NCBI GenBank assembly: GCA_021777135.1
Contig: JAJYDX010000006.1
Span: 1 to 64,000, forward strand
Source of the DNA: a bacterium
GTDB taxonomy: Bacteria > SZUA-79 > Acidulodesulfobacterales > Acidulodesulfobacteraceae
DNA: 64,000 nucleotides
Direction: 5' to 3'
Shown one piece after another: positions 37,576 to 43,980 of this stretch. The stretch's first letter is position 1. Each line of letters begins with the position of its first letter. The notes under the pieces are model-generated. The model searched no databases. It was not told where the DNA came from and worked only from the letters and a program-made list of their open reading frames with translations. A program made the position numbers and the translations under genes.

Positions 37576-38895
37576 TTAAATAACTGGAAGTTTGCCTTCA
37601 ATTAAATCATTAGCAAATTCTTTCATTTTTCTACAATCTTCTTTTATATATTCCCATTCATCTACCTCTTTTTTAACCTCGAATTGATTACTAGCATAAT
37701 CATCTGGATACCATATATTGTGCCTCTCTTTTGTAATGATATCAACCGGAAGACGGGTTGCTTCCCTAAATTGCTTAATACTATCATCCGACAACTCATA
37801 CCCCCAAAAGGGAATCCTAGCTGCTTCACAAAAACAAATTAACTCCTTAAGCTCGCTTCTACATTTATGATAATTCCATCTTTCTATCTCCAATACTTCA
37901 TACGTATAATATTCGACACCTTCAATAGTTTTATTTCTAAATTTAATTATCACGCCTATGGGCTCTTCTCGCCATTTACCACGGTCATTATCTAACTTAG
38001 CTTGTTCAAAATCAGCACTCATTCGTCTTATAAACATTACCTCTGTATGTAAATTATCTTTATAATTATATTTAAAAAGCTTTCTTCCAATATTATGAAT
38101 ATTTTTATACCAACGAACTTCTAAACCAAATGTATAGCAGAAATCACTTTTAAAAGATAGCCATTCATATGTTACACGGAAAGTTTCAGCCAATGTTCTT
38201 AGTAAGTTATAATCTATATTATCTATAAATTCTTTACTATCAAATAATGAAGAAATTTTAAAATTTTCTTGCCCTATAAAACTGCCCATATTAAATAAAT
38301 CTATCCCATGCGATTGGAATAAGTTTATAATTCTTGCTTTAATACCGTCAATATAATGTTTTAAAGTTTCCATTTTAATAGCATCCTTTTCAATTTCTAT
38401 ATTGCCTTTGCTATAATTTTTCTGATTATTTTTACTATCATGTAAAGATTTTTTAATTTTAAAAATTGTATTAGGCAAATCTTTATTGTCTCTTGAATCT
38501 AAATTTGAACGAATATTTGATAAAAATTTGAATTTTTTATTAGAAATTAATTCCTTATTGGATATATCATATGGAATTATAAAAATTTTGAAATTTTCAT
38601 CATTAAGACTTTGTTCGTAAGCTAATTCAGCCTCCATTTTAATCCATTCCCTTCTGCAATTAAGATAATTAGGAGTGATTAACAATATAGCAGAATTAGA
38701 TTCTTTTAATAATCCAAAGTTTATCTTTGTTATAATATTATCTCCATAGTTAATTCGGTCTTCATCACGCCAAATATCTAAACTAGGCTCGCCATACCCG
38801 CTTGACGTTAGTTCTTTATAGATACGTTCAACAAGGCGGAAATCCTCATTTACATAAGATATAAAAGAATCAAATTTTTTTATACTTTCATTCAT
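37576..38895 (-). CDS. TIR-domain protein with unknown C-terminal region
   Basis: Residues 6-135 form a TIR domain: FDSFISYVNEDFRLVERIY, LDIWRDEDRINYGDNI and SAILLITPNYLNCRREW, with Trp84 and a putative catalytic Glu88 (WIKMEAE). TIR enzymes of this kind cleave NAD or make cyclic ADP-ribose signals. Residues 165-439 match nothing I know; they include WYKNIHNIGRKLFKYNY, a basic stretch EVMFIRRMSADFE and a Trp-rich end. Its ATG overlaps the stop of the TIR-TIR-SLOG gene by 8 bp, so it is the last gene of the operon and may be an effector or second signal maker. Confidence 0.8.
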   Translation of the reverse strand: MNESIKKFDSFISYVNEDFRLVERIYKELTSSGYGEPSLDIWRDEDRINYGDNIITKINFGLLKESNSAILLITPNYLNCRREWIKMEAELAYEQSLNDENFKIFIIPYDISNKELISNKKFKFLSNIRSNLDSRDNKDLPNTIFKIKKSLHDSKNNQKNYSKGNIEIEKDAIKMETLKHYIDGIKARIINLFQSHGIDLFNMGSFIGQENFKISSLFDSKEFIDNIDYNLLRTLAETFRVTYEWLSFKSDFCYTFGLEVRWYKNIHNIGRKLFKYNYKDNLHTEVMFIRRMSADFEQAKLDNDRGKWREEPIGVIIKFRNKTIEGVEYYTYEVLEIERWNYHKCRSELKELICFCEAARIPFWGYELSDDSIKQFREATRLPVDIITKERHNIWYPDDYASNQFEVKKEVDEWEYIKEDCRKMKEFANDLIEGKLPVI

Positions 38896-40921
38896 ATATT
38901 TTTTTTAATCCTTTTAGTATAAGATAAATCGCTTCATCCATAAAAGGAGTTACAAAAAGTCTACGATTATCTTTATCATTAAGCCCGTTATTTAATAATT
39001 TAGATATACTTAAAGATTTAAAAGTATTTATTGCATTACCATACTCATCAGCGTAATTATATTTCCTTGAAGAAGCATAGTCTAGCAAGTCTTTATACCC
39101 TTTATTGTTATAGACTTGCCATTCAACGGTAAGTTCTTCAGGCGTCCCCTTACTAGTTATTAAATCGCAAACCTTCGAAGTTATTCCTCCAAAACCACCT
39201 AATAAAAATAATGGTTTCCTTTTTTCTACCGCTATAATGATTTCCTCCAAAACACCCGGCATTTTTCCTTTATACCCGCTACTTGTTCCTCCAGCAGATA
39301 TTCTAACATCACAGTTTTCAATCATTTCTTTTCTCATTTCGGATAAACATCTTGTCCAAACAAAAATATTCTCTTTTCCAATAGGGCCTAAAAATGCTTT
39401 ATCATTTGCAATAAGGCCTTTAACATCGCCAGGACATTTAACCTCTTTCATTTCTGCCACATTATTATATCTAGCTTTCCAGTTAATAATTTCAGGGGTG
39501 TCCCCTAAATATATTGGCCAGGAAATATAATTTTCTATATGAATATTTTCAGAAATAAGTCTCGCTTGTAATATCTGAGCCTCTTCAAATAAAAATTCGG
39601 TAAAACCATTTTTTCTTAGATCGCCTCCGTAGATTAATATTCCATGCCTTGCAAGTATATGCCTTGCTATATCTTGAGAAAGAATGGTAAGGTACGGCTC
39701 ATCTTGTCCAATTTCTATTAATTCATTTGGTAAAGGATTAGAAATAGAAATACCTACCCTTTTTCCGGTTAAATTTAAACCACCTAGTGATAATGGAGTT
39801 TCAATTATGCAACCCTTGTTTTTCAAAAAGGATAATTCCTCTGAATAAAGCGGGGGTTCCGGATAAACTATCGGCTTTAACTTGCATTCTTCAAAAACTT
39901 TATCGGTCTTGGTATTGAATATTTTCTCTAAATCTGACATTTCTGGGGGTCTTGAAAGTATTTGGGCGTCATTAGGAATCCATTTTATCCTCCTATATTC
40001 TTTTAACAAAAACTCAGAGTAAAAAAACCTTATAGTTTCAAGCAACGCTAATCTTAAAACGCGTAATAAATCCTTTTTACTTACTATGTAGTCGCAATCT
40101 AAACCCACATGTACCCCTGGAATATTAGCCGCGAAAGGAAACCTGCGATCCTCAAACTCCTCAAGACAGTCAACGGCTATCATAGGGCATTCAAGCTCTT
40201 TTGCGCATAATATTTCCTTTTGACACCAATACCGCGAAGAATAAATGTCAGAATGGATAGCAATGAGTGTTGAATCTTTGATATTATCTTCAATTTCCTT
40301 GTTAAATTGATAACCTGGCGCAATATCGGTAGCATCAAAGAAGTTGTTCATTACGGATTTATCGATGAATTCTTTCAGCGCTTCGGCAACTTTTATCCCC
40401 TGCTTTCCATCTTTTGCGTGACTTAAGAATATTTTCAAAGCAGTTTGTTTTCCTGTTTTATTTTCTTTAAAATCTTTATTTAAAGCATATCTGTAAATTT
40501 CATGCGCAATAGAAATAAATAAATAATCTTCTAAATAACACTGTTCAAAATTATATGCCCTAATAAAATTTAGTTGCTTAATAGAACTTAAATTAAATGC
40601 CGTTTTGTCCAAAGCTATTGGGATTAATCTGCACTTTTCGTTATTAGGTAAATCCTTTATATAGTTGGCCCATTCTTTATCAGCTAATATGTTTTCTCCA
40701 ATAAAGGAGAAGATTATGGTTTTTTCACTTATTAACTCAATTTGGTCAGGTACTTTATTATTAATTGAAGTCCTATAAAAAATAGGAAGGTTCATGGAGC
40801 GTGAAAATGGCTTGGATGAGTCTCTTTGTAATAATTTACTGCAAAAATCTACTAAAGGCTTAACTTTATCTAAATCAGCTGGATGCCATATAAAGTATAT
40901 TGATAATGGAGGCTTATACAT
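38888..40921 (-). CDS. TIR-TIR-SLOG protein, probable signal-gated NADase
   Basis: Three parts are visible in this 677-residue protein. Residues 5-140 are a divergent TIR-like domain (LSIYFIWHPADLDKVKPL); the equivalent of the catalytic Glu after W84 (ADKEWANYI) is missing. Residues 160-295 are a second TIR (LKIFLSHAKDGKQGIKVAEAL) with YWCQKEI, so Trp232 and Glu236 may be active. Residues 385-600 form a SLOG domain (KRVGISISNPLPNEL, ILIYGGDLRKNGFTEFLF, ISAGGTSSGYKGKMPGVLEE, PLFLLGGFGGI). In Thoeris ThsA, SLOG binds the TIR-made cyclic nucleotide and switches on a SIR2 NADase; here a TIR replaces SIR2. ATG at 40921 is chosen over a TTG at 40942. Confidence 0.8.
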   Translation of the reverse strand: MYKPPLSIYFIWHPADLDKVKPLVDFCSKLLQRDSSKPFSRSMNLPIFYRTSINNKVPDQIELISEKTIIFSFIGENILADKEWANYIKDLPNNEKCRLIPIALDKTAFNLSSIKQLNFIRAYNFEQCYLEDYLFISIAHEIYRYALNKDFKENKTGKQTALKIFLSHAKDGKQGIKVAEALKEFIDKSVMNNFFDATDIAPGYQFNKEIEDNIKDSTLIAIHSDIYSSRYWCQKEILCAKELECPMIAVDCLEEFEDRRFPFAANIPGVHVGLDCDYIVSKKDLLRVLRLALLETIRFFYSEFLLKEYRRIKWIPNDAQILSRPPEMSDLEKIFNTKTDKVFEECKLKPIVYPEPPLYSEELSFLKNKGCIIETPLSLGGLNLTGKRVGISISNPLPNELIEIGQDEPYLTILSQDIARHILARHGILIYGGDLRKNGFTEFLFEEAQILQARLISENIHIENYISWPIYLGDTPEIINWKARYNNVAEMKEVKCPGDVKGLIANDKAFLGPIGKENIFVWTRCLSEMRKEMIENCDVRISAGGTSSGYKGKMPGVLEEIIIAVEKRKPLFLLGGFGGITSKVCDLITSKGTPEELTVEWQVYNNKGYKDLLDYASSRKYNYADEYGNAINTFKSLSISKLLNNGLNDKDNRRLFVTPFMDEAIYLILKGLKKIYE

Positions 40922-40966
40922 ATTTCTACAAATAAAAACCAAATATTTTATTATATTTAATTAATT

Positions 40967-41506
40967 TTATGGCTGCCATTGCTCACCGGAACGATTGTTA
41001 ATAAACGAAGGGTAAGAATTGTCCGGCTCTATTTTATTTCTGTTATTAAAAGCCTCATCAATCCGATTTTGCAGCTCAGTTTTATTTTCTGTCCAATTAT
41101 ATATCTTCGCAAAATTACGTTGGATGTTATAATAAAGCCTAGGAGGTATAGTATAAGGATCATAATGTTTAATATCGCTTCTTGGATATGTTGGTAAAAT
41201 GATTCCAAGAAGTCCAGATCTTGGGTTTAAACTGGTATTCCTAATACTTGAACCTATTTCCCAATCAACATGTTTGCGTTGCCATGTTTGTGCGCCAATT
41301 AATACAACAGTAACGGTAGAGTCTCTAAGGTATTCATCTCTTATTTTTTGTCTAATAGTTTCAACTGACAGTCTGGGATCTATATCACCTATCTCAACAG
41401 ACCTGGGAATAACAATGCCATCCGTTAGTTTATCAAACTCGTCACGATAATACTCATCATTGTTATGATGATAGCTTACAAACACTTTGTGGTGAGTATT
41501 ATTCAT
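40967..41506 (-). CDS. ThsB-like TIR protein, copy 2
   Basis: This 179-residue protein is of the MTH538/ThsB TIR-like kind: HKVFVSYHHNNDEYYRDEF, IPRSVEIGDID, STVTVVLIGAQTWQRKHVDWEI (with the Trp and Glu of the TIR active site), SGLLGIILPTYP and YNWTENKTELQNRI. In Thoeris, ThsB senses phage and makes a cyclic ADP-ribose isomer. ATG at 41506 is chosen because GGAGGAG precedes it; the longer frame would add 24 unrelated residues. It is about 45 bp upstream of the SLOG protein gene and paralogous to 41639-42181. Confidence 0.85.
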   Translation of the reverse strand: MNNTHHKVFVSYHHNNDEYYRDEFDKLTDGIVIPRSVEIGDIDPRLSVETIRQKIRDEYLRDSTVTVVLIGAQTWQRKHVDWEIGSSIRNTSLNPRSGLLGIILPTYPRSDIKHYDPYTIPPRLYYNIQRNFAKIYNWTENKTELQNRIDEAFNNRNKIEPDNSYPSFINNRSGEQWQP

Positions 41507-41638
41507 AAATAACTCCTCCAATCTGATACCCATGCCAAAATATGGCAAATCATTATTGAATAAATCTCTTAAGTCCATTTTTACTCTTTTTACGTTGTAA
41601 TTTATTCATTAGCATAGATAAACGGATTCAAAATTATA

Positions 41639-42181
41639 CTAACAGCTTCTATTGTATTTAAATTGCGTGCGAGAATTATCTATGGAATCGGCTTTTTTTA
41701 TTCTGTTTTGAAAAGCCTCCTCGACCCATTTTTTTATCTTGTTCTTTTCTTCTGTCCAAGGATATAATTGAGCATAATCTGTATCAATATTATCTACCAA
41801 CCTTAGAGGAACAATATCGGAATCAACTTCAATTTTTTTGAAATCAGGATGGTTAGGCAAACAGATTCCCAATAAACCTGAGTAGCCACCAATCTTTTTA
41901 TTTAAAGCTGCCGATATTTCCCAGTCCACATGCTTTCTACTCCAAGTATGAGGGCCGACCAAAACAACCAAAACCGATGAATCCTCAATATAATTCAATT
42001 GAATTAATCTTTTTATATATTCATTGCTATTGTCGATATCTATATCTCCTTTCTGAACAGACTTAGGTATAAATAAATCTTTAAATAATTTTTCAAATTT
42101 GTTTTTATACAATTCATCTCCTTTGCATTCTTTATTTCCATGAAAATAACTAATAAAGACTTTATGTTTTTGATTATTCAT
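41639..42181 (-). CDS. ThsB-like TIR protein, copy 1
   Basis: This 180-residue paralogue shares the same landmarks: HKVFISYFHGNKECKGDEL, IPKSVQKGDIDI, SSVLVVLVGPHTWSRKHVDWEI, SGLLGICLPNHP and YPWTEEKNKIKKWVEEAF. The start at ATG 42181 follows a GGGAGGGG ribosome site. The two copies differ along most surface stretches while sharing the core, which fits the known habit of Thoeris loci to carry several thsB genes with different triggers for one ThsA. It lies 63 bp after the nuclease gene on the same strand. Confidence 0.85.
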   Translation of the reverse strand: MNNQKHKVFISYFHGNKECKGDELYKNKFEKLFKDLFIPKSVQKGDIDIDNSNEYIKRLIQLNYIEDSSVLVVLVGPHTWSRKHVDWEISAALNKKIGGYSGLLGICLPNHPDFKKIEVDSDIVPLRLVDNIDTDYAQLYPWTEEKNKIKKWVEEAFQNRIKKADSIDNSRTQFKYNRSC

Positions 42182-42244
42182 TACTACCCCTCCCTTTTTA
42201 TTTCTCAATCTCTTGTAGTTATTTAAAAAAATAAATATGAAATA

Positions 42245-43165
42245 TTATTTCCCTATATAATCCAATATCCCCTTCTCCACCATATCCAAATTAAATACAT
42301 ACTCGTTATGGTCAAATGTTTCCCTTAACGGCCTCTCCGTGGTTTTCCAGCCGTAGCCGTCGGTAATCCATATAAACTTATATTTCCCGTCTAAAACGTC
42401 GTAGAGATTCCTGTATTCCCCGGCGGTAGATTTAAGCTTGGAACCGCCTCCGCCGTAAAAGTTGGTTTCAAAGATAATGAGTTCCCTGCCGTTATTAATA
42501 ACGAAGTCGTATCTCCTGGAAGACTTATCGACCGGAACGTCTATATTCCATTTGTCTTTTATCTTCCCGGCATCGGCTTCCTTTATATATTCGAGGTTCT
42601 TCCTGTCGCAGAGGTCTTTAATGAAGAACTCGACAATGTTTTCCATGCTGTGGCCGCTTCTGTTTTTCCTTCCGTTGCTGTCAAGTCCGGCTTCCACGCC
42701 TATCATGTAATCAACGAGGTTTTTAATCTTTTTTGATACGATTAAATCTTTAAGGCCGGACTCCTTTATAAAATACAGGTATTTTTCTATGTCTTTACCG
42801 GTGGGTTTGGTAACGGTAAAGTCGTAGTCTTCATAGACGAACTTTTTATGCTTATAATCAATAAGGATTTTGAATCTCAGGCTATTACTTCCGTCCCTTA
42901 CTATGAGGGAGGGGATTGCTTTAATTACGGAGGGGTTTTCTTTTACGAGGTGCTTAAACTCCTTGTCGAAGTCTTCCTTGCCTATAAGGTAGTTTAAGCT
43001 ATTTAAGGCTATTTCAATTTTTTTGGTATTCTTAATGACCTTATCCCAGTTCACGAAATAAGACCACAGGAGTATGCTGGGCTTTAGGTTGTTAATAAAA
43101 TATTTAAAAACGTCGTCTTCGGTATTACAGTTTAGAATTTTAGAATAAAAATCCAAATATTTCAT
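42245..43165 (-). CDS. DpnII/MboI-type restriction endonuclease
   Basis: This 306-residue protein matches the DpnII family: LIGKEDFDKEFKHLVKENP and IPSLIVRDGS in the N-terminal half, then GHSMENIVEFFIKDLC, RRYDFVINNGRELIIFETNF with the catalytic D and E-x-N of the PD-(D/E)xK fold, YGGGGSKLKSTAGEYRNL and FIWITDGYGWKTTERPLRE. Members cut GATC sites that lack adenine methylation. The start overlaps the methyltransferase stop by ATGA. Cognate GATC specificity is inferred from family only. Confidence 0.88.
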   Translation of the reverse strand: MKYLDFYSKILNCNTEDDVFKYFINNLKPSILLWSYFVNWDKVIKNTKKIEIALNSLNYLIGKEDFDKEFKHLVKENPSVIKAIPSLIVRDGSNSLRFKILIDYKHKKFVYEDYDFTVTKPTGKDIEKYLYFIKESGLKDLIVSKKIKNLVDYMIGVEAGLDSNGRKNRSGHSMENIVEFFIKDLCDRKNLEYIKEADAGKIKDKWNIDVPVDKSSRRYDFVINNGRELIIFETNFYGGGGSKLKSTAGEYRNLYDVLDGKYKFIWITDGYGWKTTERPLRETFDHNEYVFNLDMVEKGILDYIGK

Positions 43166-43980
43166 AACCGCGCATATGCCTCTTCGTTTTTAATATTAAC
43201 CTTCATGTCCTCGAACCTCTTAACGGACAAATCAAGATATTTCTTTTCATTGTCTATACCTATGAAGTCCCTGTTAAAGAAAGAAGCGGCTATGCCGGTA
43301 GTGGAACTTCCGGTAAAGGGATCCAATATTAGGTCCCCTTCGTTGGTGCTTGCAAGGACAATTCTTTTTAAGAGGTCGAAGGGTTTTTGCGTTGGATGCT
43401 TGCCGAATTTCTTCTCTATGGGCTTAGGGGCGTTTATGGACCAGTAAGACCTCATCTGCATACCGGGCTTCTTAAGGGAGTCTTCCGGCCACTCTCCGTT
43501 CTTCATGAGGTCGTAGTTGAAGGTATGTTTGCCTTTCTTGTCCTTCCTCGCCCATATAAGGGTCTCGTGGCTTGCGGTAAAGAAGCGGCAGCTTAGGTTG
43601 GGAGGGGCGTTGGGCTTAAGCCAGGCTACGTCGTTAAGGAGATGGTAATCGTTAAGTTCTAAGGCGTAGCCGCACTGGTATATGGAATGATACGTCCCGC
43701 TTATCCATATTGTGCCGTTGGGCTTTAATATCCTCCTGCATGCCTTAATCCACTGCATATGGAACTCGAAGTTCTTCTTGACCCCGCTGCTTAAGTCCCA
43801 GTCGCCTTTCTTAACGCTTACCCTTTTTCCGCTGTGGCAGGAAAAGGAGCCGCTCGAAAGAAAATATGGAGGGTCTGCGAAAACCATGTCCACGGAGTTT
43901 TCGGGGAGTTCTTCCAGAAGGGAAAGGGAGTCTCCGAGGTAGAGGGAAAAGCCGGGTTTTGAGTAGTACGATCGGGTCAT
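43162..43980 (-). CDS. DpnA-like adenine-N6 DNA methyltransferase
   Basis: This 272-residue beta-class methyltransferase has the catalytic VDMVFADPPYFLSSG early (motif IV, about residues 30-44) and the AdoMet motif LILDPFTGSSTTGIAASFF late (motif I), as in DpnA/M2.DpnII, which methylates GATC adenines and acts also on single-stranded DNA. The companion alpha-class enzyme DpnM of classic DpnII systems is absent here. It heads the minus-strand operon; the nuclease follows with a 4-bp overlap and the TIR genes follow that. Confidence 0.9.
   Translation of the reverse strand: MTRSYYSKPGFSLYLGDSLSLLEELPENSVDMVFADPPYFLSSGSFSCHSGKRVSVKKGDWDLSSGVKKNFEFHMQWIKACRRILKPNGTIWISGTYHSIYQCGYALELNDYHLLNDVAWLKPNAPPNLSCRFFTASHETLIWARKDKKGKHTFNYDLMKNGEWPEDSLKKPGMQMRSYWSINAPKPIEKKFGKHPTQKPFDLLKRIVLASTNEGDLILDPFTGSSTTGIAASFFNRDFIGIDNEKKYLDLSVKRFEDMKVNIKNEEAYARL

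What the first reader, a model, noticed from the sequence alone, without database searches (positions are those of the whole stretch)
37576..42181. Enlarged Thoeris-like operon: two ThsB-like TIRs, a TIR-TIR-SLOG protein and a fourth TIR protein
Seen: four tightly packed minus-strand genes (two overlaps or gaps under 50 bp) with four TIR-bearing proteins, two of them MTH538/ThsB-like paralogues, and one SLOG domain fused behind two TIRs. Known: in Thoeris, ThsB makes a cyclic ADP-ribose isomer and the ThsA SLOG domain senses it to switch on SIR2. Inference: here the SLOG gates a TIR NADase in place of SIR2, TIR1 (no catalytic Glu) may be regulatory, and the 439-residue TIR protein with an unknown 270-residue C-terminus may be an additional effector or amplifier. 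I do not know a described system with this exact set.
Basis: partly seen in the sequence, partly recalled or inferred. Interest (0 to 1): 0.88.

Follow-up and report, generated by a model that had tools for sequence, protein, structure and literature searches.

The report
Thoeris-like operon with TIR-TIR-SLOG effector
Four neighbouring bacterial genes form a probable anti-virus alarm system in which small TIR proteins would make a chemical signal that switches on a second, NAD-destroying TIR protein; it is a fused relative of the recently named type III Thoeris systems and recurs across many bacterial phyla, sometimes inside DNA-restriction operons.

Summary
Four minus-strand genes encode two ThsB-type TIR proteins, a 677-residue TIR-TIR-SLOG protein (called TTS here) and a 439-residue TIR protein. 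The set ThsB, often a second ThsB/TIR, and TTS is conserved: 152 TTS relatives turned up in one scan of bacterial genomes. In 92 loci examined, 68 have a ThsB-like TIR within 3 kb; ThsB density is about 50 times higher there than farther out. TTS gives a confident model (pLDDT 89). Its second TIR keeps the catalytic Glu (70/71); the first has lost it.

The system is not without precedent. NCBIfam already names 'type III Thoeris' (ThcB4 = TIR-TIR; ThcA = SLOG, adjacent genes). TTS is collinear with ThcB4 then ThcA, but falls far below both model cut-offs and uses a different SLOG cluster. TTS is also split into two adjacent genes in E. coli, Klebsiella and Bacteroidota. So this is a fused sister variant of type III Thoeris.

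The fourth gene is peculiar to this locus: its C-terminus belongs to an uncharacterised, mostly plasmid-borne family and occurs beside no other TTS.

Unexpected: in six phyla the module sits inside type I restriction operons; here it follows a DpnII-type pair. The mechanism is inferred, not shown.

The parts
41639..42181 (-). ThsBa: 180-aa ThsB/MTH538-type TIR protein; candidate catalytic Glu E88 (codon 41918-41920)
   Evidence: PF08937 63.2 bits; profile of ThsBa, ThsBb and relatives matches B. cereus ThsB 6LHY E 1.6e-11 with the Glu aligned; E88 >=90% conserved
40967..41506 (-). ThsBb: 179-aa ThsB-type TIR paralogue (46% identical to ThsBa); E83 (codon 41258-41260); start set at the internal ATG behind GGAGGAG
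   Evidence: PF08937 59.4 bits; alignment; sequence
38888..40921 (-). TTS: 677-aa TIR1-TIR2-SLOG protein, probable signal-gated effector
   Evidence: PF13676 and PF18163; AF2 model pLDDT 88.9, pTM 0.91; 152 relatives in genome scan
40481..40909 (-). TIR1 of TTS (residues 5-147), degenerate: Tyr/Phe at the catalytic Glu position, conserved W84
40022..40435 (-). TIR2 of TTS (residues 163-300) with SHA, D196, W232, C233, catalytic E236 (codon 40214-40216)
   Evidence: E236 in 70/71 relatives; TIR_2; Foldseek to SARM1 TIR prob 1.00
38894..39760 (-). SLOG domain of TTS (residues 388-676), LD_cluster2; R530 (codon 39332-39334) and E559/E560 (39242-39247)
   Evidence: PF18163 208.4 bits, PF18185 STALD 18 bits on the core; R530, E559, E560 near-invariant
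37576..38895 (-). TIR4: 439-aa protein, N-terminal TIR with E88 (codon 38632-38634) and unrelated C-terminal domain; starts within the end of TTS
   Evidence: PF13676 40 bits; nearest PDB TIR 7uxr E 1.7e-5
37579..38475 (-). C-terminal domain of TIR4 (from about residue 141), member of an uncharacterised family with motif RWNYWRCR
   Evidence: tblastn to 26 plasmid records (Vibrio, Salmonella and others); alignment A4; no Pfam match in relatives
42245..43165 (-). DpnII-family restriction endonuclease directly upstream; context of the module
   Evidence: PF04556 307 bits
43162..43980 (-). N6/N4 DNA methyltransferase, pair of the DpnII gene (4-nt overlap)
   Evidence: PF01555 185.7 bits

Best explanation
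This is a Thoeris-like anti-phage abortive-infection module, a fused sister variant of type III Thoeris. ThsBa and/or ThsBb sense infection and convert NAD+ into an ADP-ribose-type signal. The signal binds the SLOG domain of TTS around R530 and E559/E560. TTS then assembles, using catalytically dead TIR1 as scaffold, and TIR2 (E236) destroys NAD+, stopping phage growth. TIR4 is a lineage-specific added sensor or NADase. Shown by computation: gene content, domain folds, conserved active-site and pocket-type residues, conserved linkage, relationship to ThcB4/ThcA. Inferred: every biochemical step, the identity of the signal, and phage defence itself.
For: Conserved linkage ThsB + TTS: 68/92 loci within 3 kb, 74/92 with any TIR, 38/92 with two or more TIR genes (density contrast). 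TIR2 catalytic Glu 70/71, TIR1 without it. SLOG residues R530 (70/70 non-gap), E559, E560 near-invariant and aligned with the R..GNK..GxxEE core of SIR2-STALD proteins, though that alignment is weak. TTS TIR1-TIR2 aligns collinearly with ThcB4, hhalign prob 96.6, E 6e-10; its SLOG with ThcA, E 2.6e-5, prob 49. TIR-TIR and SLOG as separate adjacent genes in Klebsiella, Pseudomonas, E. coli, Bacteroidota, as for ThcB4-ThcA. The same SLOG type is fused to a patatin phospholipase inside the E. coli ThcB4-ThcA locus, which points to SLOG as input and the fused domain as output. TTS model similar to TIRs of SARM1/IL-1RAcP, weaker to ThsA and TRPM2. Precedent for ThsB signal to SLOG to NADase: PMC11204291, PMC12578639.
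Against: No activity is shown. Whole-chain Foldseek hits are weak (ThsA 6lhx E 1.6e-3, prob 0.77; top ranks are generic Rossmann folds). The SLOG-ThsA profile comparison is weak on its own (E 0.008), and residue 546, Lys/Arg in 60 of 71 relatives, is Thr here, so the ligand could differ. 18 of 92 loci show no TIR neighbour in the retrieved flank (some flanks are short).
Confidence: 0.6

Rival explanations
1. TTS is not the killer but a signal amplifier or signal-modifying hub: TIR2 makes a second messenger under SLOG control, and another protein (TIR4 or a gene elsewhere) is the effector.
For: Most described Thoeris TIRs make signals rather than kill; the E. coli ThcB4-ThcA locus carries a separate SLOG-patatin effector besides the TIR proteins, so its TIR-TIR protein need not be the killer. 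Several TIR genes often sit beside TTS.
Against: In most TTS loci no other conserved effector gene accompanies TTS; the window has no patatin, caspase, macro or SIR2 domain among its neighbours.
Confidence: 0.2
2. No small messenger: ThsB proteins, TTS TIR1 and TIR2 form a direct TIR-TIR assembly on a phage protein, and SLOG only binds NAD+ or a product to set the threshold.
For: TIR domains signal by co-assembly; in S. aureus Thoeris ThsB1 and ThsB2 assemble on the phage capsid protein (PMC12578639). TIR1 is conserved but catalytically dead, as expected of a docking domain.
Against: SLOG is strongly conserved, with a near-invariant R/E set, and is fused to a phospholipase elsewhere, which fits a ligand switch better.
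Confidence: 0.12
3. The module is a guard of the neighbouring restriction-modification system: it fires when restriction fails or is inhibited, as PrrC guards some type I systems (PrrC is from my own knowledge). This could be true together with the best explanation.
For: The order HsdM-HsdS-TIR genes-TTS-HsdR on one strand recurs in L015, L018, L025, L028, L049, L062 from six phyla; L040 is similar (HsdM is not seen in L018); in the window the module follows DpnII R-M genes by 63 nt.
Against: Most TTS loci have no recognised R-M gene next to them (only type I genes were scored there); co-transcription in a defence island could explain the order.
Confidence: 0.2
4. TIR4 is an independent single-gene defence or regulatory gene that merely overlaps the operon. 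This concerns TIR4 only and could be true together with the best explanation for the other three genes.
For: Its C-terminal family is absent from all other TTS loci; relatives are mostly lone plasmid proteins.
Against: 8-nt overlap with TTS suggests translational coupling; extra downstream TIR genes recur at other TTS loci: L014, L017, L038, L052, L053.
Confidence: 0.45

Closest known systems
Type III Thoeris, ThcB4 + ThcA (NCBIfam NF058526, NF058525)
   Same: Degenerate TIR + active TIR followed by a SLOG, accompanied by ThsB-like TIR proteins; collinear by hhalign; both kinds carry the same optional neighbours of MazG / UDG type
   Different: TTS is one fused protein; LD_cluster2 not LD_cluster3 SLOG; scores 30.7 bits against the 220-bit ThcB4 cut-off and no ThcA match
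Type I Thoeris, ThsA (SIR2-SLOG) + ThsB
   Same: ThsB-type TIRs plus a SLOG-bearing probable NADase; conserved R and E in the SLOG core
   Different: TIR replaces SIR2; SLOG is a different cluster (best Pfam LD_cluster2 208 bits, STALD 18 bits)
SLOG-patatin proteins annotated 'CBASS cGAMP-activated phospholipase' (L109 3407-5083, L113 1408-3030)
   Same: Same SLOG type, including its C-terminal LNNGL..LILKGL segment
   Different: Output domain is a phospholipase (Pfam-tested in L109), not TIR
Type II (TM-macro) and type IV (caspase-like) Thoeris
   Same: TIR-made ADP-ribose signals gate an effector (PMC11204291, PMC12847820)
   Different: No macro, membrane or caspase-like effector among the four genes
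TIR-based systems of Yirmiya et al., bioRxiv 2025 (doi 10.64898/2025.12.03.692087)
   Same: A systematic survey of TIR signalling systems, cited in PMC13232231 as source of type VI Thoeris; may include this architecture
   Different: Paper not held here; could not be checked

Membership tests
Thoeris in the broad sense (ThsB-type TIR + signal-gated effector in one operon) | ThsB-family TIR with catalytic Glu | tested here: met
   PF08937 over cut-off for both; match to BcThsB 6LHY, Glu aligned
Thoeris in the broad sense (ThsB-type TIR + signal-gated effector in one operon) | TIR makes an NAD-derived signal that activates the partner; anti-phage protection | not testable with these tools
   needs biochemistry and plaque assays
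Type I Thoeris | ThsA with SIR2 fused to STALD-type SLOG | tested here: not met
   no SIR2; SLOG is LD_cluster2, STALD only 18 bits, below its cut-off of 24
Type II Thoeris | TM-macro ThsA | tested here: not met
   no macro domain
Type III Thoeris (NCBIfam) | ThcB4 over the equivalog cut-off (220 bits) | tested here: not met
   30.7 bits over TIR2 only
Type III Thoeris (NCBIfam) | ThcA over cut-off (110 bits; LD_cluster3 SLOG) | tested here: not met
   no match; SLOG is LD_cluster2
Type III Thoeris (NCBIfam) | TIR(dead)-TIR(active) followed by SLOG, with ThsB-like TIR partners (architecture inferred here from the loci, not read from a paper) | tested here: met
   hhalign TT vs ThcB4 prob 96.6, E 6e-10, 311 columns; SLOG vs ThcA E 2.6e-5, prob 49; partners
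Type IV Thoeris | caspase-like protease effector | tested here: not met
   no such domain in the four genes or nearest neighbours
TIR NADase | conserved catalytic Glu in W-x-x-x-E context | tested here: met
   TIR2 E236 70/71; TIR4 E88
SLOG LD_cluster2 | Pfam PF18163 over cut-off | tested here: met
   208.4 bits, cut-off 25.3

The most novel reading that the evidence does not exclude
A widespread, unnamed Thoeris class in which both the signal maker and the signal-gated killer are TIR proteins, and which is physically built into restriction-modification operons as a back-up that fires when DNA restriction is evaded.
Probability: 0.22. Interest if true: 0.75.

Novelty: new variant of a known kind. 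Interest (0 to 1): 0.52.

Why it matters
It extends TIR-to-SLOG signalling from SIR2 killers to a TIR killer, gives a testable split-versus-fused comparison with type III Thoeris (split TIR-TIR / SLOG versions occur in E. coli, so standard laboratory phages can be used), and exposes a recurring physical link between TIR signalling modules and restriction or DNA-modification genes that has no explanation yet.

Tried and rejected
(1) 'Unprecedented set': rejected after NCBIfam gave ThcA/ThcB4 and a genuine ThcB4-ThcA locus was found in Geomonas and in plasmids. (2) Strict membership of type III Thoeris: rejected, both equivalog cut-offs missed. (3) TIR4 as conserved fourth component: rejected, its C-terminal family is absent from the other TTS loci. 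(4) Phage origin of TTS: only 2 viral contigs in the profile scan, none with the single sequence. (5) AlphaFold2 of TIR4 without alignment: pLDDT 34.6, useless. (6) TIR4C in phage records and viral contigs: none. (7) SLOG profile against PDB by sequence: only chance hits. (8) Promoter and terminator scan: no more sites than in shuffles. (9) Literature: no open paper with 'type III Thoeris' or a TIR-SLOG effector described as such; Rousset 2025, Burroughs 2015 and 2020, and Yirmiya 2025 not held. (10) A first script read ThsBb in the wrong frame; corrected. A first ThsA comparison used the wrong strand; corrected.
Full report
WHAT IS THERE. In order of transcription: ThsBa (41639-42181), ThsBb (40967-41506), TTS (38888-40921) and TIR4 (37576-38895). 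Two starts are better placed than in the raw ORF list: ThsBb at the internal ATG behind GGAGGAG, and TTS at ATG 40921. TTS and TIR4 overlap by 8 nt. Pfam supports ThsB_TIR for the first two, TIR_2 plus SLOG LD_cluster2 for TTS, and TIR_2 for TIR4. Directly upstream on the same strand lie a DpnII endonuclease and its methyltransferase. GC is 25-34% over most of the TIR genes, against 42-47% in parts of the flank, which suggests acquisition by transfer.

CONSERVATION. tblastn of TTS finds full-length relatives on plasmids of Priestia, Gloeothece, Aureispira and others. A profile scan of one genome per species found 152 relatives, of which 80 were fetched, spread over Bacillota, Bacteroidota, Pseudomonadota, Desulfobacterota, Verrucomicrobiota, Planctomycetota, Cyanobacteriota, Actinomycetota and more. 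In 92 loci a ThsB-like TIR lies within 3 kb in 68, any TIR in 74, two or more TIR genes in 38. ThsB-like ORFs number 96 in 493 kb near TTS and 2 in 538 kb farther away; the search profile was built from the near copies, so the exact ratio is flattered, but the contrast is large.

ANATOMY OF TTS. The AlphaFold2 model from 33 aligned sequences has mean pLDDT 88.9 and pTM 0.91. Foldseek gives TIR domains (SARM1, IL-1RAcP; prob 1.00) and, more weakly, ThsA and TRPM2 (whose N-terminal part is SLOG-like, from my own knowledge); the top E-values are generic Rossmann folds and are not used. In 71 sequences, TIR2 keeps E236 in 70, and TIR1 has Tyr or Phe at the matching place in 62. In the SLOG, R530, E559 and E560 are near-invariant and align with the R..GNK..GxxEE core of SIR2-STALD (ThsA-type) proteins, although that profile comparison alone is weak (E 0.008). 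That R371, K388 and E403 of B. cereus ThsA contact 3'cADPR is from my own knowledge. Position 546, usually Lys or Arg, is Thr in the window.

RELATION TO KNOWN SYSTEMS. NCBIfam holds 'Thoeris_type3_ThcA' and 'Thoeris_type3_ThcB4'. A genuine ThcB4-ThcA pair was found in Geomonas and on 29 plasmids; in the ten loci whose proteins were extracted, ThcB4 is immediately followed by ThcA. ThcB4 aligns collinearly with TIR1-TIR2 of TTS (prob 96.6, E 6e-10), mostly through TIR2; TIR1 on its own gives no significant match. ThcA, an LD_cluster3 SLOG, aligns with the TTS SLOG (E 2.6e-5, prob 49). TTS is itself split at the same place in Klebsiella, Pseudomonas, E. coli and Bacteroidota. Both kinds carry similar optional neighbours: MazG-type pyrophosphohydrolase, UDG and a small TIR paired with a hypothetical protein, which at TTS loci is Nmad2. 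In the E. coli ThcB4-ThcA locus an LD_cluster2 SLOG is fused to a patatin phospholipase. I therefore place TTS as a fused sister variant of type III Thoeris: it probably works like it, but does not pass its family cut-offs. The open library has no paper on type III Thoeris; a 2025 preprint that may cover this architecture could not be read, so 'undescribed' is not claimed.

MECHANISM. The modular evidence (the same SLOG on TIR or phospholipase; an active TIR behind a dead one; ThsB-type TIRs next door) fits best with ThsB signal, SLOG switch and TIR2 NADase. Each biochemical step is inference. Main rivals are TTS as signal amplifier, and direct TIR co-assembly.

TIR4. Its TIR has the catalytic Glu, but its C-terminal 300 residues belong to an uncharacterised family with a RWNYWRCR motif, found in 26 plasmid records and in only 4 of 399 genomes of one phylum searched. 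The plasmid relatives examined have a different N-terminus, and no relative found carries this domain beside TTS. It is probably a local addition.

CONTEXT. In L015, L018, L025, L028, L049 and L062, from six phyla, TIR genes and TTS lie between HsdS and HsdR of a type I restriction operon, all on one strand. In 31 loci a ThsB-like TIR is paired with Nmad2, often with a 5-hmdU-kinase-type gene and a thymidylate-synthase homologue or with MazG_C and UDG. The window's DpnII neighbours fit the first pattern loosely. This link is the most surprising part and is unexplained.

Noticed in passing
L015, L018, L025, L028, L049, L062 (also L040); window 37576-43980: TIR genes + TTS sit between HsdS and HsdR of type I restriction operons, same strand, in six phyla; in the window the module follows DpnII R-M genes by 63 nt.
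   Followed up: partly
L032, L033, L034, L044, L046, L029, L042, L072 and others; L010, L090 divergent: A ThsB-like TIR (about 160 aa) is paired with Nmad2 (PF18753), with HMUDK_hel + thymidylate synthase homologue or MazG_C + UDG: a DNA/nucleotide hypermodification-type gene set tied to TIR signalling; a similar set lies beside ThcB4-ThcA in L111 and L113.
   Followed up: partly
L109 3407-5083, L113 1408-3030, L108 1546-3141: LD_cluster2 SLOG segment in longer proteins; in L109 fused to a patatin phospholipase inside the E. coli ThcB4-ThcA locus. L109 and L113 copies are annotated as 'CBASS cGAMP-activated phospholipase', probably a misleading name there.
   Followed up: partly
L132 3079-6982 (E. 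coli UK_Dog_Liverpool chromosome): E. coli carries a split TTS (TIR-TIR and SLOG genes) with two TIR genes; TIR-TIR/SLOG DNA is in 12 of 5426 E. coli genomes: a tractable test system.
   Followed up: partly
window 37579-38475; L119-L122: Uncharacterised plasmid-borne family, motif RWNYWRCR; the plasmid relatives have an N-terminal segment that looks like a ribbon-helix-helix, replaced by a TIR domain in the window.
   Followed up: partly
window 39284-39286 (TTS residue 546): Residue matching a Lys/Arg conserved in 60 of 71 relatives, next to the ThsA-like pocket motif, is Thr here.
   Followed up: no
L005 1-766: On an Aureispira plasmid a type III-B CRISPR (Cmr6) operon end lies about 5 kb from a TTS locus.
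   Followed up: no
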